Below, in pieces: positions 1-31,387 of a stretch of 43,444 bases of DNA; position 1 is the first letter of the stretch; each line of letters opens with the position of its first letter. The translations under genes were made by a program, and so were the position numbers. The notes below the pieces were generated by a model. The model made no database searches and was not told the DNA's origin. It saw only the letters and a program-made list of their open reading frames with translations. Origin of the DNA: Prochlorococcus sp. AG-402-K04 (lineage in GTDB: Bacteria > Cyanobacteriota > Cyanobacteriia > PCC-6307 > Cyanobiaceae); contig QCID01000009.1 in the NCBI GenBank assembly GCA_003216895.1, positions 1 through 43,444 on the forward strand. The letters run 5' to 3'.

Positions 1-1907
1 GTTACGCTATCTCCATCAAGACCAATGAATTTATGCCATCCAAAGCTCTCTGCGGCTTCAACTACTAGTCGTTTTCGGATGTTAGAGGGTAAAACTTCTT
101 CTTGATAACTTTCGCTTTGTTCTTCAAAAAGTTCAACGCATGGCATAGAAACTACACGCACTTTTTTTCCTTCTGAAGTTAGCTTTTTCGCTGCTTGCAC
201 ACATAAATCAAGTTCTGTTCCAGTTCCAATAAGTATTAGTTCAGGCGTGCCATCGCATTCTTCAAGTACATATCCACCCAAAGCAACTTTATCTACTGAT
301 GAATTTTGTTGATTTGCCATACCCTGCCTACTTAGGCATAAAGAACTTGGTCTCTTACGATTTCCTATCGCAACTTTATAAGCACCACTAGTTTCGTTTC
401 CATCACCTGGACGGAAAACCAGCATATTAGGCATTGCTCTAAGTGATGGAATGGTTTCTATTGGTTGATGTGTTGGTCCATCCTCACCAACACCTATGGA
501 ATCGTGAGTTAAAACATAAATAACACCTAGCTCGCTTAGCGCGGAAAGACGCATCGAACCTCGCATGTAGTCTGCGAAAACTAAAAAGGTTCCTCCATAT
601 GGGATTAGGCCACTATCGTGATATGCAATACCATTCAAAATGGCTGCCATAGCATGTTCTCTGACGCCGAAATGTAAATAACGTTTTTCAGGACTGTCAT
701 ATTGAAAAGATCCAGTCTCACCTTTGATATCTGTATAATTTGAATGGGTTAAATCCGCAGAACCACCTATTAATTCAGGAACATTAGGACCTAGAGCACC
801 TAAACATATTTGAGAATGTTTTCTTGTGGCAAGGCCTTTGTCATCAGCAGTATATGTAGGCAAATCTTTGTCCCACCCTTGGGGAAGCTCCCCTCTAAGC
901 ATCCGTTCAAATTCAGATGCTTCATTAGGATACTTTTCTCTGTAATCAGCAAGTTTTTGATTCCAATCGGCCTCAAGTTTGGATCCTCTTTCAATCGCTT
1001 GACGGTATTGGTCGTATACATCTTGAGGGATGTTAAAAGGTTCATACGACCAACCAAGTTCTTTCCTTGTAAGTTCGGCTTCCTCTTCTCCAAGAGCCGC
1101 TCCATGGATCCCAGCTGTATCACTTTTATTTGGAGAACCGAATCCGATGGTTGTCGTAATTTTTATAATTGATGGCTTATCGGTAACTGCTTTTGCCTTT
1201 TCTATCGCCTTAGCTATACCCTCAACATCTGTATTACCATCAGGTATTTCTTGAACATGCCAACCATAAGCTTCATATCTCTTTAATACATCTTCTGTAA
1301 AAGATACATCTGTTCTTCCATCAATTGTGATGCTGTTGTCGTCGTATAGAGCGATTAATTTTCCAAGCTTTAGATGACCAGCAAGTGAACAAGCTTCTGA
1401 AGCAATTCCTTCTTGATTGCATCCATCACCCATGATTACATAGGTGAAATGGTCTACAACGGTTGAATCAGGCTTATTAAATTTGGCTGATAAATGCGCT
1501 TCTGCTATCGCAAGTCCCACTGCATTAGAAATTCCAGCTCCCAATGGCCCAGCAGTGACTTCTACCCCCGGTGTCTCGAAGGTTTCTGGATGACCAGGTG
1601 TTTTTGCACCCCATTGTCGGAATTGTTTTATATCCTCCATCGTTACAGAGTCGTAGCCAGTTAAATGCAAAAGGGCATACAACAACATGCATCCATGTCC
1701 AGCAGAAAGAACGAATCTGTCTCGGTTGAACCATTTAGGATTTTTGGGATTATGACGAAGATGCTTGTCCCACAAGGCGTAACCCATCGGTGCGCATCCC
1801 ATGGGAAGTCCTGGGTGACCACTATTTGATTTATTAACTGCGTCAACTGCGAGCATTCTGATGCTATTGATGCATAGCGTGTCTAGAGAATTAGTCAGGG
1901 CAACCAT
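1..1907 (-). CDS. tktA: Transketolase (3' end cut off by window edge)
   Basis: This thiamine-diphosphate enzyme transfers two-carbon ketol units in the Calvin cycle and the pentose phosphate pathway in the cytoplasm. The reading frame is open from the ATG at 1907 to the window edge, about 635 residues. The family is usually about 665-670 residues, so only a short C-terminal piece is missing. The N-terminus reads [19 protein letters not shown] and is followed by the typical SGHPGLPMG segment. The ThDP/Mg-binding GDGCNQEG motif lies at about residues 160-167, and the pyrimidine-domain segments GVREHAM and [13 protein letters not shown] follow. It lies 49 bp downstream of fabF on the same strand and may be co-transcribed with acpP-fabF. 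The identification is very secure. Confidence 0.97.
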
Positions 1908-1956
1908 TTGTATTTAGTGGAAAAAATTTTTAAGTGGACAGTGAAGACGAAATTGA

Positions 1957-3204
1957 TTAGATCATTTGTCGAAAAGCTAGACAGACATTGTGACCGCCAA
2001 ACCCGAAAGAGTTAGATAGTACGACGCCTAATTTCTTTTCTCTTGCTTGATTGGGAACATAATCAAGATCACAATTTGGGTCGGGATTTGAATAGTTAAT
2101 TGTTGGCGGAATTATTTCATGTTTTATTGCCAAAACACAAGCAATGGCTTCTATTCCTCCTGACCCGCCCAACAAATGACCGGTCATTGATTTGGTTGAG
2201 CTAGTAGGAACTTGGAATGCATGATCCCCTAATGCAGTTTTAATTGCCGAGGTTTCATTACTGTCATTTGCTGGAGTACTTGTTCCATGAGCATTTATGT
2301 AATCGACTTGCTCGGGATTAATTTTCCCATCATTTAATGCAAGTTTCATTGCTTCTGCACCACCTATTCCACCTGGGGTTGGAGATGTAATGTGATGAGC
2401 ATCACATGTGGTTCCATAACCAATTATTTCTGCATGGATTTTCGCGTCTCGTTTTAATGCATGGTCAAGAGTTTCTAAGATTAAAACTCCTGCCCCTTCT
2501 CCAATTACAAATCCATCTCTTTGAGAATCAAAAGGTCTACTTGCTGTAGATGGATCGTCATTTCTAAAGGATAAGGCTTTCGCACTTGCAAAACCTGCTA
2601 CACCCAAAGGAGTGATACTTGCTTCTGCTCCCCCGCAAACCATTGCATCTGCTTTACCTAATTGCAAGAGTCTGAATGCATCACCAATAGCATTTGATCC
2701 TGCGGCACAAGCAGTTGAAACTGCTGAACTTGGACCTTTAGCGCCAAGTGCAATTGCCGCAAGACCAGTAGCCATGTTTGGAATCATCATGGGTACGGTA
2801 AACGGACTTACTCGACTAGCTCCTTTGTTGCTCAAAACATGTGCTTGAGTTTCCATTGTAAGCAATCCACCGACTCCAGATCCAATAATCACTCCAATTC
2901 TTGCAGAATTTGAATCGTCAATTATTAGACCTGAATGTTGCAGTGCTTCTTTTGCTGCAATGACTCCAAATTTTGAAAAACGATCCCATCTTTTGGATTC
3001 TTTCGGCTCTAATATGCCTGTTGGGTCAAAGTTTTTTACCTCTGCCGCAAATCTGCAGGCATGAGATGAGGCATCAAAGAGAGTTATTTGATCTACCCCA
3101 TTTTGACCAGATTGAAGCCCTTGGAGGTAGCTTTCAAGGTTGTTGCCAATTGGAGTAATGGCACCAAGACCTGTAATAACAACTCGATGGAGTTTCTCCA
3201 TCAT
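1957..3204 (-). CDS. fabF: 3-oxoacyl-[acyl-carrier-protein] synthase II (KAS II)
   Basis: This is the elongating condensing enzyme of type II fatty acid synthesis; it condenses malonyl-ACP with acyl-ACP. The catalytic triad is visible: Cys166 in STACAAGSN, His306 in NAHGTSTP and His343 in MTGHLLGG, with Lys338 nearby. The length of 415 residues is normal. The frame stays open upstream to 3261, but that would overlap acpP. I chose the ATG at 3204 because the protein then starts MMEKLHRVVITGLG, as in the family, and a TTGAGG ribosome-binding sequence precedes it. The second ATG at 3201 is equally possible. The gene starts only 7 bp after acpP, so the two are probably translated from one mRNA. 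Confidence 0.96.
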   Translation of the reverse strand: MMEKLHRVVITGLGAITPIGNNLESYLQGLQSGQNGVDQITLFDASSHACRFAAEVKNFDPTGILEPKESKRWDRFSKFGVIAAKEALQHSGLIIDDSNSARIGVIIGSGVGGLLTMETQAHVLSNKGASRVSPFTVPMMIPNMATGLAAIALGAKGPSSAVSTACAAGSNAIGDAFRLLQLGKADAMVCGGAEASITPLGVAGFASAKALSFRNDDPSTASRPFDSQRDGFVIGEGAGVLILETLDHALKRDAKIHAEIIGYGTTCDAHHITSPTPGGIGGAEAMKLALNDGKINPEQVDYINAHGTSTPANDSNETSAIKTALGDHAFQVPTSSTKSMTGHLLGGSGGIEAIACVLAIKHEIIPPTINYSNPDPNCDLDYVPNQAREKKLGVVLSNSFGFGGHNVCLAFRQMI

Positions 3205-3211
3205 TTGAACC

Positions 3212-3454
3212 TCAAGACTGTTTTTCTTCGATGTATTTGACTGCATCCCCGACAGTGGCAATGCCTTCTGCAGCCTCGTCGGGGATCTCTATGTCAAATG
3301 CCTCTTCAAGAGCCATAACTAACTCGACAGTGTCGAGAGAGTCAGCTCCAAGGTCGTTTTGGAAATTTGAATCCGGTTTTACTTCACCGGCTTCGACGCT
3401 CAGTTGTTCTGCGACAATAGAACGAACTTTTTCAAGGATTGCTTCCTGGGACAT
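3212..3454 (-). CDS. acpP: Acyl carrier protein
   Basis: This is the small acidic carrier of growing acyl chains in fatty acid synthesis. The 80-residue protein has the usual length and contains the 4'-phosphopantetheine attachment motif GADSLD, with the modified serine at residue 39. Helix II ([18 protein letters not shown]) is intact. The start ATG at 3454 is preceded by AAGAAGG as a ribosome-binding site. It is the first gene of the acpP-fabF(-tktA) cluster and is divergent from psaC, with about 136 bp between them. Confidence 0.98.
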
Positions 3455-3542
3455 AACCTTCTTAGACCTGACTTCTAATACTACGGGTTAAAGTGTCGAG
3501 TTAACAAAAGTGACGGCATTGCAACTATTTTTTTTTATGTAG

Positions 3543-3853
<311 letters not shown>

Positions 3854-3901
3854 ATCGAAGGTTTATTTTATATAAGTAATTTGTGATGTTGATTTAAATA
3901 T

Positions 3902-5806
3902 ATGTGTGGCATATTTGCTGTGATTGGATCAAGAGAAGTTTCTTCTTTACTAATTGATGGGTTAAGAAGACTGGAATATCGTGGTTATGATTCAGCAGGG
4001 ATAGCAACAATTCATGATTTAGATAATGATCAAACTGGACAATTAAATGTCATTAAATCACAAGGAAAGCTTATTAATTTATCGAATTTAATTAAAAAAA
4101 AGCCTCCAAAAGGTCATGTAGGTATTGCTCATACCAGATGGGCTACTCATGGGAAACCAAACGAAAGGAATGCTCATCCTCATATTGATGCATCAGGGCA
4201 AATTGCTGTTGTGCAAAATGGGATTATCGAAAATTACAGAGAGTTATCAAAAAACCTGAAACTTAAAGGGATTAACTTGACCTCTGAAACTGACACTGAG
4301 GTTATTCCACATTTAATCGGGTTAGAGATAGAAAAGTCTCTGGCAAATGGACTTTCCCCTAATGAACAAACATTATTAATATCTGTTCAAAAGGTTTTGA
4401 CATTATTAGAGGGAACTTATGCCATAGCAGTGATTTGGTCTAAGGCTCCAAATGCTCTCGTTGTTGCGAGGGGACAAGCGCCATTAGTTCTTGGCTTTGG
4501 TGAAGGTGAATTTTTTTGTGCAAGTGATACGCCAGCATTAGTGGGCTTTACCCGTACATTTTTACCTTTAAGGGATCATGAAATTGCACTTTTAACGCCA
4601 TTAGGGATTGAACTTTATGATGCTGCTGGCAATAGACAGCACAGAGCACCATCACTTTTAAAGGGCACTGAACTGTTTGCGGATAAAAGAAATTTTCGTC
4701 ATTTTATGCTTAAAGAAATTTACGAGCAGCCAGAGACAGCACAACTGTGGATAGATAGATTTTTACCTATGGATTTGCCTCCGGAAAAATCAGTGGCTTT
4801 CCCTATATCTAAATCGATCCTAGATAAAATAGAACAAATACAAATACTTGCCTGTGGTACAAGTAGACATGCCGGTATGGTTGGAGCATATTTGTTGGAA
4901 CAGTTTGCAGGAGTTCCTACAAAAGTATATTTTGCAAGTGAATTTAGATATGCTCCGCCTCCCCTTTCCCCCAATACTTTGACTATAGGAGTTAGTCAAT
5001 CGGGCGAAACAGCAGACACTCTGGCTGCGTTAAGGATGGAAAAGGAGAGACGAGATTCAATGAAAGATGCCAATTTTTCTTTTCATCAATTGGGAATTAC
5101 TAATAGAGTTGATAGTTCATTAGGTCGCGAACTAGATAATGTTATTGATATTGGATCAGGCATTGAAATAGGTGTTGCAGCAACGAAAACTTTTCTTGGT
5201 CAAATGTTGTCCTTTTATGGTTTGACACTGTTATTTGCTTCTAATAGGCAAAAAAGAACCCCTCAAGAAATATTAGATCTCTCTAATGATTTGAGATTAA
5301 TTCCTAAACAGTTAACAGCTCTAATAAGAAAACATGATTCTCTTTCTCAGGAAATAGCACATTTGTTTGTTGAAACAAAGGATGTAATTTTTTTAGGTAG
5401 AGGAATAAATTATCCAATTGCCCTTGAAGGGGCTCTTAAATTAAAGGAAATAAGCTACATCCACGCTCAAGGTTATCCAGCTGGGGAACTAAAACACGGA
5501 CCAATAGCACTCTTAGATCAACATGTTCCAGTAGTATCTCTAGCTGTTCCTGGAGTCGTTTATGAAAAAGTTCTTAGTAACTCACAAGAGGCTAAAGCTA
5601 GAGATGCCCGTTTGATTGGGGTATCAACATATGGACCGGAATCAGAAATGTTTGATGAATTATTTACTATTCCAAAAGTTAGTGAATGGGTTAGTCCCCT
5701 ATTGACAGTTGTCCCTTTACAGCTATTTAGTTATCACATAGCAGCTCATAAAGGTTTAGATGTCGATCAGCCTCGCAATTTAGCAAAAAGTGTAACAGTA
5801 GAATAA
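3902..5806 (+). CDS. glmS: Glutamine--fructose-6-phosphate aminotransferase (isomerizing)
   Basis: GlmS makes glucosamine-6-phosphate from fructose-6-phosphate and glutamine, the first committed step towards UDP-GlcNAc for peptidoglycan and lipid A. The protein is 634 residues, slightly longer than the usual ~610. The N-terminal Ntn glutaminase domain begins MCGIFAV, with Cys2 as nucleophile after Met removal, and contains RRLEYRGYDSAG and HTRWATHG. Two SIS sugar-isomerase domains follow, marked by ACGTSRHAG and GVSQSGETADTLAAL. The C-terminus DQPRNLAKSVTVE is the family end signature. No glmS ribozyme or strong ribosome-binding site is visible in the 65-bp leader. Confidence 0.97.
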   Translation: MCGIFAVIGSREVSSLLIDGLRRLEYRGYDSAGIATIHDLDNDQTGQLNVIKSQGKLINLSNLIKKKPPKGHVGIAHTRWATHGKPNERNAHPHIDASGQIAVVQNGIIENYRELSKNLKLKGINLTSETDTEVIPHLIGLEIEKSLANGLSPNEQTLLISVQKVLTLLEGTYAIAVIWSKAPNALVVARGQAPLVLGFGEGEFFCASDTPALVGFTRTFLPLRDHEIALLTPLGIELYDAAGNRQHRAPSLLKGTELFADKRNFRHFMLKEIYEQPETAQLWIDRFLPMDLPPEKSVAFPISKSILDKIEQIQILACGTSRHAGMVGAYLLEQFAGVPTKVYFASEFRYAPPPLSPNTLTIGVSQSGETADTLAALRMEKERRDSMKDANFSFHQLGITNRVDSSLGRELDNVIDIGSGIEIGVAATKTFLGQMLSFYGLTLLFASNRQKRTPQEILDLSNDLRLIPKQLTALIRKHDSLSQEIAHLFVETKDVIFLGRGINYPIALEGALKLKEISYIHAQGYPAGELKHGPIALLDQHVPVVSLAVPGVVYEKVLSNSQEAKARDARLIGVSTYGPESEMFDELFTIPKVSEWVSPLLTVVPLQLFSYHIAAHKGLDVDQPRNLAKSVTVE

Positions 5807-5877
5807 AACTTCATTAAATTTTTAGTGATTTTAGCTAATTAGTTTCAAACAGTTTTTAATAAAATGATAATTTTTTA

Positions 5878-7335
5878 TTAATTCAGATTTTTTATTCTGC
5901 CATAAGAATCTTCAAAGCGAATGATATCTTCTTCGTCTAAATATTCTCCACTTTGAACTTCAATAAGCTCAAGTTTCATTATTCCTGGATTGCTTAATCT
6001 ATGCTTGCAGCCTAATGGAATAAATGTACTTTCATTTTCCCCTAAAAGTTGTTTTTCTCCATTTTTTTCTATCAATGCTTTCCCGTTAACTACAATCCAA
6101 TGCTCGGCTCTGTGATGATGCATTTGTAATGAAAGAGAAGCATTTGGTTTAACTTCTATAAGCTTTACTAGCCATCCATTACCTTCAACTATTGTAGTGT
6201 AATTACCCCAAGGTCTATAGATTTTTCTATGCATTTTAACTTCTGGAAAGTCAGATGAATTGAGACTTTTTATTATATTTCCAATATTTTGAGATTGATC
6301 TCTATTGGCTACTAATATTGCATCATTTGTATCTATAACTATTAGATTTTCTATTCCTATTCCTACAATTAGACGTTGTTCACTTTGTAAATAACAATTT
6401 TTACTTTTTTCGGCTATTACTCTTCCATTTATATAGTTTCCATCATTATTTTTTTGACTAATATCCCACAAAGATTTCCAACTTCCTATGTCGTTCCATC
6501 CTGCTTTTAAAGGAAGAACGGTTCCTAATTTTGTTTTTTCCATCACAGCAACATCTAAAGATATTTTTGGACATTTCTTGAATGATGCAGCTTCTAATCG
6601 TAGGAAATCAAGATCTTCTACATCTTTTTCAATAGCAATTTTGCAATAATTTATTATTTCTGGATAGAATTTTTCTAATTCACTTATTATTGCACTTGCT
6701 TTAAAAAGAAACATACCGCTATTCCAAGTGTAGCGAGAATCTTTGATTAATTTCTCAGCTATATCTTTATTAGGTTTTTCTATAAATTTGTTTATTTCTA
6801 AACCATTTATTTGATCTTCTTCGTTAGCCAATTCTTTTGCTTCAATGTAACCGTAACCAGTTTCAGCGCACGTTGGAACGATACCAAAAGTTACTAACCT
6901 CCCTATATTTGCATATGTTTTTGCAGCTTGAATTACTTTTTGAAATTCAATGATATTTTCTATTACATGATCGGCCGCTAAAATCAAAAGTAAAGGATCT
7001 TTACCTAGAGAAATTGCTTGAAGAGCAGCGACTGCAATTGCTGGAGCAGTGTTACGTCCCACAGGCTCCAGAATAATTGCCTGAGGATCGATATTTATCT
7101 CTCTAAATTGCTCTGCAACTATAAATCTATGATCTTGATTACAGATCAATATGGGATTTTCAAGTCCCTGTAAACCTAAAAGTCTTTCATAGGTTTTCTG
7201 CAAAAGAGTTTTCTTAGTGCGTGAATCTAATGCGAGAAATTGTTTAGGATAGCTTTCTCTAGAAAGTGGCCAAAGTCTTGTTCCTGATCCACCACTAAGA
7301 ATTACAGGAATGATTGAATTATCAATTATTTCCAT
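5878..7335 (-). CDS. manC: Mannose-1-phosphate guanylyltransferase / mannose-6-phosphate isomerase (type II, bifunctional)
   Basis: This enzyme makes GDP-mannose from mannose-1-phosphate and GTP, and the fused domain may interconvert mannose-6-P and fructose-6-P. It supplies mannose or fucose-type sugars for surface polysaccharides. The N-terminal nucleotidyltransferase carries ILSGGSGTRLWPLSRESYPKQ, and FIEKPN lies further on. The C-terminal cupin domain (about residues 365-480) carries RPWGNY, QMHHHRAEHW and the terminal EVQSGEYLDEEDIIRFED block of the bifunctional class. The length of 485 residues is normal for that class. It is convergent with glmS and 52 bp downstream of rimM. Whether the isomerase half is active cannot be told from sequence. 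Confidence 0.92.
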   Translation of the reverse strand: MEIIDNSIIPVILSGGSGTRLWPLSRESYPKQFLALDSRTKKTLLQKTYERLLGLQGLENPILICNQDHRFIVAEQFREINIDPQAIILEPVGRNTAPAIAVAALQAISLGKDPLLLILAADHVIENIIEFQKVIQAAKTYANIGRLVTFGIVPTCAETGYGYIEAKELANEEDQINGLEINKFIEKPNKDIAEKLIKDSRYTWNSGMFLFKASAIISELEKFYPEIINYCKIAIEKDVEDLDFLRLEAASFKKCPKISLDVAVMEKTKLGTVLPLKAGWNDIGSWKSLWDISQKNNDGNYINGRVIAEKSKNCYLQSEQRLIVGIGIENLIVIDTNDAILVANRDQSQNIGNIIKSLNSSDFPEVKMHRKIYRPWGNYTTIVEGNGWLVKLIEVKPNASLSLQMHHHRAEHWIVVNGKALIEKNGEKQLLGENESTFIPLGCKHRLSNPGIMKLELIEVQSGEYLDEEDIIRFEDSYGRIKNLN

Positions 7336-8919: not shown

Positions 8920-8997
8920 AATAGTTTAAAGCATATAATTTAAGTGATAAAAAGTAGGATTTTTATTTTAATTTCTTTGTATAAAATTAATAAAGTG

Positions 8998-9405
8998 AAA
9001 GCAGGTCATAAGCCGGGTTCTGTTCATTCTTTTTCTTTTAGAAAGCGAATGGGTAATCATCTATCTGGGACTAACGTTACCGATAGCCTCAAGCGGCTCT
9101 CCTCAGGGGCAAGGTCTATGGCCTCCAGTGCCCCTCGCCTTGCTCCTAGCCGGGGTTTACCTAGCCAGCACCTCTCGATGCTGCTGGTGCGCTCTTACCG
9201 CACCTTTGCACCCTTGCCGCGCTTGTTGGGATTTCCCCATTAAGCATTAGGCGGTGTGTTTCTGTGGCACTATCCTCACGGTCACCCGCACTGGGAATTA
9301 CCCAGCAAGCCTGGCCAAATAGGAGCCCGGACTTTCCTCAATAGAATTCTTCAGCTTTCGCTGAAGTTCAATTGCGATCACCTCCCCTGCTTTCAACTCC
9401 ATCAT
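8998..9405 (-). ncRNA. rnpB: RNase P RNA (catalytic subunit)
   Basis: The minus strand reads like a bacterial type A RNase P RNA. Its 5' conserved region reads GAGGAAAGTCCGGGCTCC (complement of about 9325-9343). The middle contains GTGCCACAGAAACACACCGCC, and the 3' end reads ACAGAACCCGGCTTATGACC (complement of about 9005-9024). These are the two halves of the P4 helix core. The exact ends are estimates: the 3' end is placed at the CTGC near 8998 and the 5' end near 9405. An open frame on the opposite strand across it is not a gene. tRNA-Arg lies next to it in the opposite orientation. Confidence 0.93.
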
Positions 9406-9429
9406 GCCTCAAGGCATAATTAATTTCAG

Positions 9430-9503
<74 letters not shown>

Positions 9504-28016: not shown

Positions 28017-28196
28017 ATGAATAAATTAAATAGTTTCAAAGATTCTTCTTTTGAAAGCAGATATAGTAGTGAAGAAAATCACAAAGAGAATGAAAGTAAT
28101 GATCAACAAGAAAAAGTTCTATGTAATCATTGTGGAAGAACCTCTAGTAACGGAATAAGATGTTTAGGTATTTGTGTGGCAGATAATGATTATTGA
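28017..28196 (+). CDS. Small Cys-rich (zinc-ribbon-like) protein, 59 aa
   Basis: This small reading frame starts at ATG 28017 and ends at TGA 28194-28196. The N-terminal 33 residues are polar and charged with many Ser, Glu and Asn. The C-terminal part, VLCNHCGRTSSNGIRCLGICVADNDY, has CxxC at residues 36-39 and CxxxC at 49-53, a pattern able to bind one zinc ion. I believe similar short proteins ending in a NGIRCxGxCVADxDY-type tail occur in other picocyanobacteria, but this has not been checked. It is divergent from the aldo/keto reductase and convergent with the 143-aa gene. The function is unknown. Confidence 0.65.
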   Translation: MNKLNSFKDSSFESRYSSEENHKENESNDQQEKVLCNHCGRTSSNGIRCLGICVADNDY

Positions 28197-28269
28197 TTCA
28201 AAATTTATCTATTCAGATTCAAATCATTAAAATAGATTATTAATATGTAGTATTAATCTGTATTTAATA

Positions 28270-28701
28270 CTATTCAATTACATCAATAATCCCTTCCGTT
28301 ATATATCTTGCCATTTTCGTAATATGCTTTCTTATTTCACCTTCTCTTATATTCCACTTGTTTGACAATTCCTTTACTTTTTTATTTTCTTTAATGTACT
28401 CAATCATTTTATTTGCTAAATATACAGGTAATTCTTGTTGATTTTTCGAAGATAAAGTTTCCCATCTTTCTTTATCGATGAGTCCAATTTCTTGGAGATC
28501 TTTTGTATTTGTAAAATTAAATAATTCTGTAATACCTATATAGAGATAAAGAGAACCTAATTCATCAAGAAAACTTTTCGATTTATTGCCATTTTTGAAT
28601 TCATTAATTTTTTCATCGAGTAAAGATATTTGTTCAGATTCACCTTCCTTTATTGAATTTAATAATTTATAAAAAGAACTGAATTCAATTTGATCAGACA
28701 C
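28270..28701 (-). CDS. Protein of unknown function, 143 aa
   Basis: No family is recognised. The protein is mostly helical and rich in Lys, Glu, Asn and Ile, which fits the high AT content here. It reads as a helical N-terminal part (SSFYKLLNSIKEGE, SLLDEKINEFKNGN) and a C-terminal part, NKMIEYIKENKKVKELSNKWNI with REGEIRKHITKMARYI after it, that resembles a helix-turn-helix pair. The start is GTG at 28701, giving MSDQIEFSSF; no ATG is available nearby. It sits at the edge of the accessory region next to tRNA-Cys and may be cargo of an older insertion. DNA binding is only a guess. Confidence 0.6.
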   Translation of the reverse strand: MSDQIEFSSFYKLLNSIKEGESEQISLLDEKINEFKNGNKSKSFLDELGSLYLYIGITELFNFTNTKDLQEIGLIDKERWETLSSKNQQELPVYLANKMIEYIKENKKVKELSNKWNIREGEIRKHITKMARYITEGIIDVIE

Positions 28702-28965: not shown

Positions 28966-29067
28966 TTGAAACTTGCTACTCACTACACATGGAGCATTGT
29001 GCTAGAAGGTTTCCTCAGGAAAATCAAATAAATCATAATCAAGACTGTACCCAGATTCGAACTGGGG
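28966..29067 (+). repeat. Left copy of a 102-bp gapless direct repeat containing a tRNA-Cys T-arm
   Basis: This segment aligns without gaps to 29963-30064. The first 38 bases differ at four positions. The middle 45 bases are about half identical. The last 19 bases (29049-29067, ACCCAGATTCGAACTGGGG) are identical and correspond to the T-arm of tRNA-Cys read on the minus strand. Overall identity is about 75% by hand count. The acceptor stem sequence is not conserved in this copy, so it is a tRNA 3'-end relic and not a working tRNA. Confidence 0.85.
29049..29067 (-). pseudogene. tRNA-Cys 3'-fragment (T-arm only)
   Basis: The minus strand reads CCCCAGTTCGAATCTGGGT, identical to the T-arm of the intact tRNA-Cys at 30039-30109. 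Neither an acceptor stem nor an anticodon arm can be drawn around it. Such displaced T-arm copies are the usual distal footprint of integrative elements that use a tRNA 3' end as target. Confidence 0.75.
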
Positions 29068-29372
29068 CAAGGTTTCTTAGATTGTTTCTATCACTAGGGT
29101 CTGAGTAACTAAGTTGGTTTATTTTCCTACCGCTTTCCTACTAAATGATTTCCAATTCCGGTAGTATTTTTTTTATCCGAGTGATGGTGGGAGGAAAATA
29201 ATAGAAGATATAAGAATCCTGTAATCTATTATCTGACTGATTTTTTCTTGAGAGTGGAAAAGATAACTGACCCTCAAAAGATCGATGAACTTTATCGGTT
29301 TGCAAGGGGAAGGAAATTGCGTTTCAGGATTTTCTATTTTTATTTGAATTAACTTACTTTGTTTTTATACCT
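29068..29372. other. Gene-free stretch inside the tRNA-Cys element
   Basis: About 305 bp without a supportable gene. It contains the left 16-mer repeat at 29126-29141. Frames are short and interrupted on both strands. It probably represents decayed left-end DNA of the element. Confidence 0.5.
29126..29141 (+). repeat. Left copy of the 16-mer CCTACCGCTTTCCTAC
   Basis: Identical to 29935-29950 and in the same orientation. Counting the two bases before it, the site contains TTTCCTAC twice (29123-29130 and 29134-29141) with an 11-bp period, about one helical turn. This suits a protein-binding iteron such as a recombinase arm site. Function is inferred. Confidence 0.7.
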
Positions 29373-29812
29373 TTGTTTTGTGTGATTTTAGTATATTTAT
29401 TTTATAGATTAGTTGACGTATTAGTTGTGAGAAAAAAAGTTAAGGAATTTGAGAATTCTAGGGGTTATATATATAACTACTCTCTTATTAATGTTTTAAA
29501 ACTATTCATTTTAAAAGGAGATATATTAAAATTTATTAGATTTAAACCAGATAAGGATTAAGTGTTTGAAGGCGATATTGTCGTTTTTAAAAAACTCAAT
29601 GCTTTGGTAGTAAAAAAATATATAAAGTATTCGATGACGGATTATTTGTTCAAGGTAATCATCCCAAAGATGCATTTTATAGTAGAACTTATGGTCTTGT
29701 GAGACTTGAAGAAGTGAAATATCTTGTGAAAGACGTAATTGATGTCCGGCAAGGATTAGATGGTAGATATTCTTTCTTTAATAAAACCGCCGAATTTAAA
29801 GTGTACTCATAG
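29373..29812 (+). pseudogene. Broken S26 signal-peptidase-like gene (in-frame stop plus -1 frame change at an A7 run)
   Basis: The first frame (29373-29561) encodes MFCVILVYLFYRLVDVLV, a hydrophobic N-terminal segment, and ends KGDILKFIRFKPDKD before a TAA at 29559. The same frame continues as VFEGDIVVFKKLNALVVKK. At A7 (29612-29618) the coding sense moves to the -1 frame and reads KIYKVFDDGLFVQGNHPKD, then AFYSRTYGLVRLEEVKYLV, ending at TAG 29810. GDIVVF, VKK and GNHPxxxxxSRTYGLV resemble the beta-strand, catalytic-Lys region and G(D/N)NPxxSxDSRxFGxV box of S26 peptidases such as the NiSOD-maturation protease. The catalytic Ser-Met segment is not recognisable. It is most likely a pseudogene. 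Confidence 0.5.
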
Positions 29813-29934
29813 AACTTATGATTTTATACCAGAAAGTTTTTATTTAGAATCCTTTAGATTAAAGAGAGACTGAATTAGGTGACGTGAGCAGGAAAATTGC
29901 GATAATTTGACCAAGGTGAATTAAAACTGACTTA

Positions 29935-29950
29935 CCTACCGCTTTCCTAC
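29935..29950 (+). repeat. Right copy of the 16-mer CCTACCGCTTTCCTAC
   Basis: Identical to the left copy at 29126-29141, same orientation. It extends to CCTACCGCTTTCCTACCGC, again an 11-bp-spaced tandem. It lies 12 bp before the right copy of the 102-bp repeat. Confidence 0.7.
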
Positions 29951-29962
29951 CGCTAGAACTTT

Positions 29963-30064
29963 TTGAAACTTGCCACTCGCTACACATGGAGCATAGTACT
30001 GGGAAGGGTTCTCAAGAAATTAAAGCGTAAACTTGTAAAGGCGGCACCCAGATTCGAACTGGGG
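29963..30064 (+). repeat. Right copy of the 102-bp direct repeat, running into tRNA-Cys
   Basis: Gapless partner of 28966-29067. The last 26 bases lie inside the functional tRNA-Cys gene, including its T-arm (30046-30064). The first 38 bases match the left copy at 34 positions. Read from 29963, most of the differences fall at third codon positions, which hints that the block may once have been coding. Confidence 0.85.
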
Positions 30065-30109
30065 ATAAAGGATTTGCAATCCTCTGCCTTACCACTTGGC
30101 CATGCCGCC
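30039..30109 (-). tRNA. tRNA-Cys (anticodon GCA)
   Basis: The minus strand folds into a complete cloverleaf with acceptor GGCGGCA/TGCCGCC, anticodon loop containing TTGCAAA (anticodon GCA), T-arm CCCAG TTCGAAT CTGGG and the U73 discriminator typical of tRNA-Cys. The CCA end is not encoded. Its antisense strand stays open and reads APRFELGIKDLQSSALPLGHAA, a peptide that often appears in wrongly extended gene models. The gene is divergent from the following LpxB-like gene and is the apparent target of the neighbouring element. Confidence 0.96.
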
Positions 30110-30166
30110 GAAAATGACATTTTCATTTCCAATTCAAATCGTATCAGTCAAACCGAACAAAATCTT

Positions 30167-31387
30167 TTGTTTCTTTGTAATGGACATGGAGAAGACACGA
30201 TTGCTTGCAAGGTTATAGAAGCTCTTCATGAAATTAATCCAGCTATCTCCTTTGAAGTTCTCCCGATGGTTGGAAATGGGAAAGCATTTTCAACGCTTGT
30301 AAAAGATGGGTGGCTTGCCAAGATTGGTACCTCAACATTTTTGCCAAGCGGGGGCTTTAGTAATCAGAGTTTTAGTGGCTTGGTTTTAGATTTAAAAGCT
30401 GGATTATTGGTAAGTCTCTGGAGGCAATGGACTTTGATTCATAGATCAGCTAAGGCAGGAAGAAGTATCGTTGCAGTTGGAGATTTATTACCTCTTCTTT
30501 TTGCATGGGCTAGTGGGGCAAATTATTTTTTTATTGGCACTCCAAAAAGTGATTACACATGGGCGAGTGGCCCAAGATCCGCTTTGAGTGATTATTACCA
30601 TCGCTTGAAAGGAACTGAGTGGGATCCATGGGAATATTTGTTGATGCGATCTTTTCGTTGCAGGATGGTTGCTGTAAGAGACAAAATCACTGCTAGAGGT
30701 TTGAGGAACCATGGTGTAAAGGCACTATCGCCAGGAAATCCAATGATGGATGGAATTTCTAAGAGAGAATGTCCTAATGATTTTAAAAAATATAGACGTT
30801 TGATTTTGTTATGTGGAAGTCGTTTACCTGAGGCGTATCAGAATTTTAAAAAACTTCTAATTGCAATCGAGCTTATTCAAATTTCATCTTCTATAGCAGT
30901 GTTTGTGCCTTTAAGTTCTTCTTCAATGAGAAAAAACATAGAATTGATATTGATTGACTCAGGTTTTAAACCTACTGATGACTCAAAAGGGAACCAAGGG
31001 ATTTCGGAAGCATGGAGAAAAAACTCGTTACTTATCTTGATTGGCTTTAATCAATTTTCTTGTTGGGCTAAGTGGGGAGAAGTAGGAGTGGCTAATGCAG
31101 GTACAGCTACAGAACAGTTAGTAGGTTTAGGTATCCCATGCGTGTCCTTGCCAGGTAAGGGCCATCAATTTAATTTTAATTTTGCTAGGCGTCAAAGTCG
31201 TTTATTAGGTGGAGCGGTAGGTATCGCTAAGGGGTATGAAACTCTCGCAAAACAAGTGGGGTTTTTACTGAATTCTGATTTTGATCGAGAAATTATTGGC
31301 TTACGAGGGTCTAAAAGAATGGGTTCCGAGGGTGGAAGTCATTCTATAGCCCTTAGTATTTCGACTCACTTGTCCAAGGGTTTATAG
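30167..31387 (+). CDS. Lipid-A-disaccharide-synthase-related protein
   Basis: This protein resembles the cyanobacterial family related to LpxB (glycosyltransferase fold) whose own function is unsettled. It opens with LLFLCNGHGEDTIACKVIEAL, the family's N-terminal nucleotide-sugar-fold signature. VAVGDLLPLLFAWASG, VRDKITARGLRNHGVKALSPGNPMMDG, and a C-terminal GVANAGTATEQLVGLGIPCVSLPGKGHQFN block follow. The frame is open from 29963, but that would translate the antisense of tRNA-Cys and is rejected. No in-frame ATG precedes the GHGED motif. TTG 30167 is my tentative start (406 aa); ATT 30119 and ATC 30143 are other options. The N-terminus is therefore uncertain. Confidence 0.82.
   Translation: MFLCNGHGEDTIACKVIEALHEINPAISFEVLPMVGNGKAFSTLVKDGWLAKIGTSTFLPSGGFSNQSFSGLVLDLKAGLLVSLWRQWTLIHRSAKAGRSIVAVGDLLPLLFAWASGANYFFIGTPKSDYTWASGPRSALSDYYHRLKGTEWDPWEYLLMRSFRCRMVAVRDKITARGLRNHGVKALSPGNPMMDGISKRECPNDFKKYRRLILLCGSRLPEAYQNFKKLLIAIELIQISSSIAVFVPLSSSSMRKNIELILIDSGFKPTDDSKGNQGISEAWRKNSLLILIGFNQFSCWAKWGEVGVANAGTATEQLVGLGIPCVSLPGKGHQFNFNFARRQSRLLGGAVGIAKGYETLAKQVGFLLNSDFDREIIGLRGSKRMGSEGGSHSIALSISTHLSKGL

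What the first reader, a model, noticed from the sequence alone, without database searches (positions are those of the whole stretch)
28966..30109. tRNA-Cys carries a 102-bp gapless direct repeat: footprint of a small integrative element
Positions 28966-29067 and 29963-30064 align over 102 bp without an indel. The final 19 bases (the tRNA-Cys T-arm) are identical, the first 38 match at 34, and the middle 45 are only about half conserved. The T-arm is kept exactly while the acceptor stem in the left copy is lost, as expected for an att-type relic. The homology also extends past the tRNA 3' end, which suggests that two related elements integrated one after another at the same tRNA. The block between is about 0.9 kb and has no integrase. 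This would be a very small non-autonomous tRNA-targeted element, or the ruin of one of the larger Prochlorococcus tRNA-island elements.
Basis: partly seen in the sequence, partly recalled or inferred. Interest (0 to 1): 0.8.

Follow-up and report, generated by a model that had tools for sequence, protein, structure and literature searches.

The report
Tiny tRNA-Cys element without its integrase
A 1-kb piece of mobile DNA has inserted at the tRNA-Cys gene of a Prochlorococcus cell; it carries no recombinase of its own, and on insertion it rebuilt both the end of the tRNA and the start of a gene lying across it on the other strand, which shows how small cargo may hop at this site in ocean cyanobacteria.

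Summary
The repeat is real and marks a precise 997-bp insertion at tRNA-Cys. Deleting 29068-30064 in silico rebuilds a 445-bp site that aligns end to end with 15 of 34 related genomes. The left copy is the displaced chromosomal end; the right copy came with the element. The homology past the tRNA is not a second element: it looks like the 5' coding part (TTG start, 29963) of a TIGR03492 gene that runs antisense through tRNA-Cys, and the element's attachment site carries a replacement for it as well as for the tRNA 3' end. Both ends carry tandem 11-bp repeats placed as in 7.1-12.8 kb elements of Prochlorococcus and Synechococcus that encode a divergent tyrosine recombinase beside a tRNA-Cys 3'-end copy. 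That recombinase fits the tRNA-Cys/tRNA-Phe integrase family of PMC10187409, which calls its integration mechanism unknown and sets it apart from tycheposon integrases. The window insert has no integrase, only a broken gene fragment. Inserts of 0.49 and 1.11 kb in two other genomes share its ends but not its interior, so a class of integrase-less mini-elements moved in trans is plausible, though decay of larger elements is not excluded.

The parts
28270..28701 (-). ORF143, conserved chromosomal neighbour that marks the undisturbed left side
   Evidence: found beside the site in 34 of 34 relatives fetched
28966..29042 (+). Left copy of the coding-like flank: displaced, dead 5' end of the host's TIGR03492 gene, with an in-frame TAA
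   Evidence: the tRNA-adjacent flank of 17 of 34 relatives, among them 13 of the 15 end-to-end empty sites, is closer to this copy than to the right one
29043..29067 (.). Distal att core: remnant of the tRNA-Cys 3' end with 19 bases identical to the T-arm side
   Evidence: corresponds to the distal core of larger elements
29068..29962 (.). Element body, 895 bp, no integrase
   Evidence: absent from the 15 of 34 relatives whose site matches the in-silico empty site
29123..29144 (+). Distal 11-bp tandem repeats, the second one decayed; candidate integrase arm sites, +80 from the distal core
   Evidence: in 6 of 7 Int-bearing elements with a distal core the pair is at +76 to +79
29373..29812 (+). 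Broken cargo: open stretches interrupted by a stop and a frame change; the later part weakly resembles an S26-type nickel-SOD maturation protease
   Evidence: TIGR02754 E = 0.0016, 18.9 bits, far below its cut-off of 63.25; no Pfam hit
29931..29952 (+). Proximal 11-bp tandem repeats, 10 of 11 identical, at -108 from the tRNA
29963..30038 (+). Right copy of the coding-like flank: element-borne TTG start and N-terminal module of the TIGR03492 gene
   Evidence: open in frame in 35 of 35 genomes, pN/pS 0.37; 88-92% identical to the flanks of L082, L078 and G011, whose gene bodies are 51-55% identical in amino acids
30039..30109 (-). tRNA-Cys(GCA), the integration target; its 3' end comes from the element
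29963..31387 (+). TIGR03492 lipid-A-disaccharide-synthase-related ORF, 474 aa, running antisense through tRNA-Cys
   Evidence: E = 1.7e-141 over residues 69-469

Best explanation
A ~1-kb integrase-less element inserted by site-specific recombination in the T-arm of tRNA-Cys. SHOWN by sequence: precise insertion boundaries, an empty site in relatives, a chromosomal left copy and a foreign right copy, and end repeats at fixed distances shared with larger elements. STRONGLY INDICATED: the element's attachment site carries about 100 bp that rebuild two overlapping genes at once, the tRNA-Cys 3' end (minus strand) and the start codon plus N-terminal codons of the antisense TIGR03492 gene (plus strand). 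INFERRED: a divergent tyrosine recombinase encoded by larger elements at the same site acts in trans, with the T-arm as core and the paired 11-bp repeats as arm sites, so that the circular form would have a lambda-like attP (repeats, about 109 bp, core, about 77-80 bp, repeats). The cargo of this copy is broken; the ends are still recognisable.
For: Removing 29068-30064 gives 445 bp aligning over 443-448 columns (1-16 gaps) at 82.0-88.3% with 15 of 34 relatives. Chromosomal sequence continues unbroken up to the left copy. 13 of those 15 empty sites are closer to the left copy; G036 and G023, which carry large elements, have tRNA-adjacent flanks 92% identical to the right copy. Second copies 0.49, 0.997, 1.11, 2.8, 10.2 and 12.8 kb away in G028, G000, G025, G016, G023, G036. 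Proximal tandem repeats of at least 9/11 in 17 of 56 scored sites, all at -107 to -112, against 58 of 10,500 random windows and 0 of 245 intergenic windows; distal pairs at +76 to +79 in 6 of 7 Int-bearing elements. Exact tRNA-Cys 3' end upstream of the recombinase in 8 of 12 loci; its model matches XerA, XerH, Cre and lambda Int. The window's distal end is related to those of G028 (41/55) and G025 (38/55); 300 shuffles reach at most 31.
Against: No homologue of the G036 integrase was found in the window's own genome, which is only 74% complete. The arm-site role of the repeats rests on position and period only; they also lie just upstream of the TIGR03492 start and of the integrase gene and could be operators. 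G023's distal pair fell below the threshold, UW105 lacks a proximal pair near -109, and in Vulcanococcus (L108) the pair is about +108 from the core. G003 and G019 are empty sites, and G017 a near-empty one, whose flank is closer to the right copy. The window's distal pair is decayed. No attP, core or integrase was found in viral contigs, phages or plasmids.
Confidence: 0.87

Rival explanations
1. Decayed remnant of one large autonomous element: integrase and most cargo were deleted after integration, leaving the two ends and a gene fragment. No trans-mobilised mini-element class exists.
For: The cargo is broken and the left repeats are decayed; several sites have only 0.1-0.7 kb more than an empty site (for example G006, G008, G022, G029); G028 keeps an integrase fragment on another contig.
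Against: G025 has a 1.11-kb insert with one open Mrr-type nuclease gene and related ends, and G095 of another genus a 926-bp one; G000, G025 and G028 share only their ends, and so do G016 and G095. Shrinkage to about 1 kb with both ends kept would have to recur.
Confidence: 0.4
2. Two related elements integrated one after another at the tRNA.
For: Repeat homology extends 77 bp past the tRNA 3' end; serial integration is suggested in G016 and G023.
Against: In the window the 265-bp chromosomal segment runs straight into the left copy, and the same flank is present in empty sites.
Confidence: 0.04
3. Duplication of the 5' end of the TIGR03492 gene by homologous or illegitimate recombination, with no mobile element.
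For: About 77 bp of flank homology is available for exchange; G017 looks like a hybrid site.
Against: A duplication would give two copies of one origin; here the two copies fall with different groups of relatives, tandem repeats sit at fixed places at the ends, and unrelated DNA lies between.
Confidence: 0.05
4. The flank is not translated; it is conserved as attachment-site DNA, and the protein starts at a TTG near codon 69.
For: TIGR03492 begins at residue 69; a TTG at codon 69 is kept in 34 of 35 genomes. One minus-strand frame also has a low ratio (0.51), and the untranslated 78 bp upstream give 0.64 in frame 0 among 12 empty-site genomes.
Against: pN/pS 0.37 in frame against 1.40 and 1.17 in the other plus frames; 0 of 35 with stops in frame, while that minus frame has stops in 34 of 35; upstream DNA diverges 0.27 against 0.105 in the flank. 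TTG or GTG at the start in 35 of 35; in-frame constraint in the linker too (0.49 against 0.84 and 1.78); a different module in other genera begins with ATG or GTG (by eye).
Confidence: 0.15

Closest known systems
Picocyanobacterial mobile element defined by integrase cluster158946 (PMC10187409, passages read)
   Same: Prochlorococcus and Synechococcus hosts, tRNA-Cys or tRNA-Phe, divergent tyrosine recombinase without PHROG hit; small serine recombinase in the large relatives
   Different: The window insert has neither recombinase; att sites, end repeats and gene-start replacement do not appear in the passages I read, which call the mechanism unknown. That our integrases are cluster158946 was not checked by sequence.
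Tycheposons (Hackl et al. 2023, recalled; cited in PMC10872708, passages read)
   Same: tRNA-targeted cargo elements of Prochlorococcus
   Different: PMC10187409 reports the tRNA-Cys/Phe integrases as distinct from tycheposon integrases; the original paper is not held here
dusA-specific genomic islands (PMC4482086, passages read)
   Same: The element supplies a new 5' end for the gene it enters, the original 5' end is displaced, and imperfect direct repeats mark the ends
   Different: Target there is one protein gene; here a tRNA 3' end and an antisense gene's 5' end are rebuilt together
CIMEs, cis-mobilizable elements (recalled, no source read)
   Same: att-flanked, no recombinase, moved in trans by related elements
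   Different: Trans-mobilisation was not tested here; no transfer helper is known
Additive islands at tRNA-Lys in Methylophilaceae (PMC10872708, passages read)
   Same: Recurring copies of a tRNA 3' end precede segments from 330 bp upward
   Different: Other hosts, other tRNA, repeats of the last 20 bp only

Membership tests
tRNA-Cys/Phe integrase element of PMC10187409 | cluster158946 integrase in the element | tested here: not met
   no integrase in the insert; no homologue of the G036 integrase in the 74% complete genome
tRNA-Cys/Phe integrase element of PMC10187409 | association with tRNA-Cys or tRNA-Phe | tested here: met
   of 12 Int loci 8 have a tRNA-Cys 3' end, 3 a tRNA-Phe-like T-arm, 1 neither in the stretch examined; only L115 was checked against an intact tRNA-Phe
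tRNA-Cys/Phe integrase element of PMC10187409 | small serine recombinase nearby (frequent, not obligatory) | tested here: not met
   none seen in the window insert; a Resolvase-domain protein in G036, similar ORFs in G023 and AG-436-O11 by eye
tRNA-Cys/Phe integrase element of PMC10187409 | the large relatives' integrase is cluster158946 | not testable with these tools
   reference sequence not available; tRNA choice, hosts, lack of PHROG hits and fold agree
Tycheposon | tycheposon-type tyrosine recombinase in the element | tested here: not met
   no recombinase in the insert; the relatives' integrases were not compared with tycheposon sequences
Tycheposon | hallmark genes listed by Hackl et al. 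| not testable with these tools
   paper not held
dusA-type 5'-end-replacing island | element supplies a new 5' end to the target protein gene | tested here: met
   right copy is foreign and coding-like; translation itself not shown
dusA-type 5'-end-replacing island | integration in dusA | tested here: not met
   target is tRNA-Cys / TIGR03492
CIME-like non-autonomous element | bounded by att sites of a related autonomous element, no own recombinase | tested here: met
CIME-like non-autonomous element | mobilised in trans | not testable with these tools
   needs an experiment, or a population holding both elements

The most novel reading that the evidence does not exclude
Picocyanobacteria carry a class of roughly 1-kb, single-cargo, integrase-less cassettes that hop at tRNA-Cys by borrowing the integrase of larger elements; each brings a lambda-like attachment site and swaps the upstream region and N-terminal module of a conserved gene that runs antisense through the tRNA, so that mobile DNA repeatedly rewrites the start of that gene.
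Probability: 0.45. Interest if true: 0.72.

Novelty: new variant of a known kind. Interest (0 to 1): 0.56.

Why it matters
PMC10187409 proposed a tRNA-Cys/Phe mobile element in the most abundant photosynthetic cells of the ocean but stated that how it is mobilised or integrated is not known. The sites described here (core, paired 11-bp repeats at fixed distances, replaced gene start, empty sites) make that directly testable. They also point to a target where one insertion must keep two overlapping genes on opposite strands intact, and suggest how cargo of a single gene, such as the Mrr-type nuclease in G025, could spread in streamlined genomes.

Tried and rejected
A second element in the window: rejected. 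A dispersed repeat: rejected; in the own genome the left copy matches only itself and its partner, and the 40 matches of the right copy in 35 of 41 genus genomes map to this locus. A source in phages, plasmids or viral contigs: a flank pattern, the core and the integrase found nothing; one search is an exact-pattern scan and would miss variants. Relatives of the cargo: its 62-residue later part has none in the 40 other genus genomes searched; the 895-bp insert as DNA gave only pieces of 27-57 bp in 4 of 200 other family genomes, two of which (G181, G060) are element ends beside the same gene. Solved structures by sequence: only a match at E = 0.6. Pfam and PHROGs named neither integrase; NCBIfam gave one an unrelated match at E = 0.07, below cut-off. 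Rfam found RNase P and two tRNAs in the window.

Limits: 6 of 41 genus genomes gave no match (51-76% complete) and were not examined. L077-L096 are the best-scoring protein matches, not a random sample, and L098 and L100 were picked because they matched the element end; lower-scoring genera match the protein only from about residue 55-67, so the antisense overlap is not universal in the family. In one search L089 was dropped, and L081 and L085 could not be compared because the predicted tRNA ends shifted the frame. Int carriers come from a pattern scan and are a lower bound. Distal ends of some Int-bearing elements are also related to each other (G023 and AG-409-O23, 38/55), so end sharing is not peculiar to the small inserts.

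Corrected on re-check: the G025 insert is 1.11 kb; the core lies 166-292 bp upstream of the aligned integrase start.

Full report
OBSERVATION. tRNA-Cys lies on the minus strand at 30039-30109. Each copy starts at a TTG codon, and a 19-bp direct repeat lies inside each end.

INSERTION. Of 41 genus genomes searched, 35 (own one included) have the right-hand sequence, among them 17 of 17 that are at least 90% complete. I fetched the 34 relatives' loci and mapped neighbours: ORF143 and the TIGR03492 gene flank the site in 34 of 34. From ORF143 to the TTG is 264-266 bp in 14 of the 15 end-to-end empty sites (251 in G039) and 1,261 bp in the window. Removing 29068-30064 gives a site that aligns end to end with 15 of 34 relatives at 82.0-88.3%. 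Six of the 35 genomes carry two copies, 0.49 to 12.8 kb apart. Several more exceed the empty length by about 0.1-0.7 kb; not all of that was shown to be element DNA.

WHICH COPY IS WHICH. Of 34 relatives, 17 have a tRNA-adjacent flank closer to the window's left copy, 16 closer to the right copy, one (G034) is tied. Thirteen of the 15 empty sites are on the left side; G003 and G019 are exceptions, and G017 has a near-empty site with an element-like flank. G036 and G023, with large elements, are 92% identical to the right copy. Chromosomal sequence abuts the left copy directly. So the left copy is the host's displaced end and the right copy came with the element.

WHY THE HOMOLOGY PASSES THE tRNA. 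The 76 bp beyond the tRNA read as protein: open in 35 of 35 genomes, starting with TTG (34) or GTG (1), pN/pS 0.37 against 1.40 and 1.17 in the other plus frames. On the minus strand the ratios are 1.66, 0.51 and 1.17, the 0.51 frame having stops in 34 of 35. The frame runs on through the nearly invariant antisense of tRNA-Cys and a linker (0.49; other frames 0.84, 1.78) into the TIGR03492 body (0.26). In 20 of 20 loci taken from other genera (the best-scoring ones) tRNA-Cys also lies antisense in the 5' part of this ORF; lower-scoring genera match only from about residue 55-67. The module comes in different versions, one like LKLATRYTWSIVL, one like MAKRIRKRDLIIEFL, and others (by eye). It is 86-96% identical in DNA between genomes whose gene body is 50-60% identical in amino acids in 30 of the 497 pairs with flank identity of at least 75%; the window's is 92% identical to that of G011 (body 55%). 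This fits spread of the module with the elements. Displaced copies decay: 3 of 6 have stops in the module, the window's among them.

END REPEATS. Tandem 11-bp repeats (at least 9/11) occur at -107 to -112 from the tRNA in 17 of 56 scored sites (7 of 35 in the genus), against 58 of 10,500 random windows and 0 of 245 intergenic ones. Eleven is the favoured period in most but not all element ends. In 6 of 7 Int-bearing elements with a distal core, a pair sits at +76 to +79; in five of these the proximal pair is alike by eye. Exceptions: G023's distal pair is below threshold, UW105 has no proximal pair near -109, and in Vulcanococcus (L108) the distal pair is at about +108. In the window the pairs are at 29931-29952 and 29123-29144 (+80; the second unit decayed). 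An inverted single copy often lies further in, before the integrase (by eye). I read these as arm sites of the recombinase; that is inference.

RECOMBINASE. The elements in G036 and G023 carry a 454- and a 465-aa protein beside the distal core. Pfam and PHROGs do not name them. Conserved R, K, R-H and Y positions (motif knowledge recalled) and an AlphaFold model whose best matches are XerA, XerH, Cre and lambda Int (10 matches at E of at most 0.001, TM-scores by query 0.25-0.38) make it a tyrosine recombinase. A pattern scan of the genome collection gave 12 loci, in Prochlorococcus, Synechococcus sp. UW105 and Vulcanococcus limneticus among others: 8 have the exact tRNA-Cys 3' end 166-292 bp upstream of the aligned start, 3 a tRNA-Phe-like T-arm, 1 neither in the stretch examined. 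L115 is a complete tRNA-Phe element in which a hairpin next to the tRNA is repeated too.

LITERATURE. PMC10187409 (passages read) describes a novel integrase family in these hosts near tRNA-Phe or tRNA-Cys, often beside a small serine recombinase, distinct from tycheposon integrases, mechanism not yet known. PMC4482086 (passages) shows dusA islands that replace the 5' end of their target. PMC10872708 (passages) describes tRNA-bounded segments from 330 bp in Methylophilaceae. PMC11389934 (passages) lists tycheposons among proposed satellites. The tycheposon paper and the journal version of PMC10187409 (its DOI recalled) are not held. Searches whose listings I read showed no title or abstract start describing these att sites; this covers only the open library.

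MINI-ELEMENTS. G000 (997 bp), G025 (1.11 kb, one open Mrr-type nuclease gene), G028 (0.49 kb, longest open stretch 91 codons), G016 (2.8 kb, three larger ORFs) and, in another genus, G095 (926 bp) have no integrase between their cores. G000, G025 and G028 share their distal 65-67 bp (75%) or part of it, and G000 and G025 also the repeats at the proximal end, but no interior; G016 and G095, of different genera, share their proximal 77 bp (78%) but hardly any interior. The distal ends compare at 41/55 (G000-G028) and 38/55 (G000-G025), with at most 31 in 300 shuffles, though two Int-bearing elements are as alike. In a 300-genome family sample, 16 genomes have two copies of the core on one strand and one (G143) has one on each strand, allowing one mismatch (counted by eye); decayed copies such as the window's are missed. 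Whether the small inserts move in trans or are worn-down large elements is open; I lean slightly to the first.

VERDICT. A real, precisely bounded, integrase-less element. It is not filed as a member of the known element because the defining integrase is missing, but it is built on the same kind of attachment system. New variant of a known kind.

Noticed in passing
L115 (G022, AG-402-I21), 1-6876: Complete integrase-bearing element at tRNA-Phe; the repeated part next to the tRNA includes a hairpin that looks like its terminator.
   Followed up: partly
L052 (G016) and L033 (G023): The distal copy is itself preceded by 11-bp repeats, as if elements had integrated one after another at the same tRNA; less clear in L079 (G095).
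   Followed up: partly
L052 (G016) insert: The 2.8-kb insert holds two related ORFs of about 292-297 aa, a 0.9-kb duplication at 69% identity.
   Followed up: no
L035 (G025), 3918-6000: A further insert between ORF143 and the distal copy with a GtrA-like and a UDP-galactopyranose-mutase-like ORF (names from recall, no search run).
   Followed up: no
window 28018-28197: Small ORF (about 60 aa) with paired cysteines beside ORF143, found in many but not all relatives.
   Followed up: no
window 8993-9503: RNase P RNA and tRNA-Arg lie side by side on opposite strands.
   Followed up: no
L117 (AG-402-G22): The integrase match covers only residues 62-385, so the gene may be damaged; no distal core was found in the stretch examined.
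   Followed up: partly
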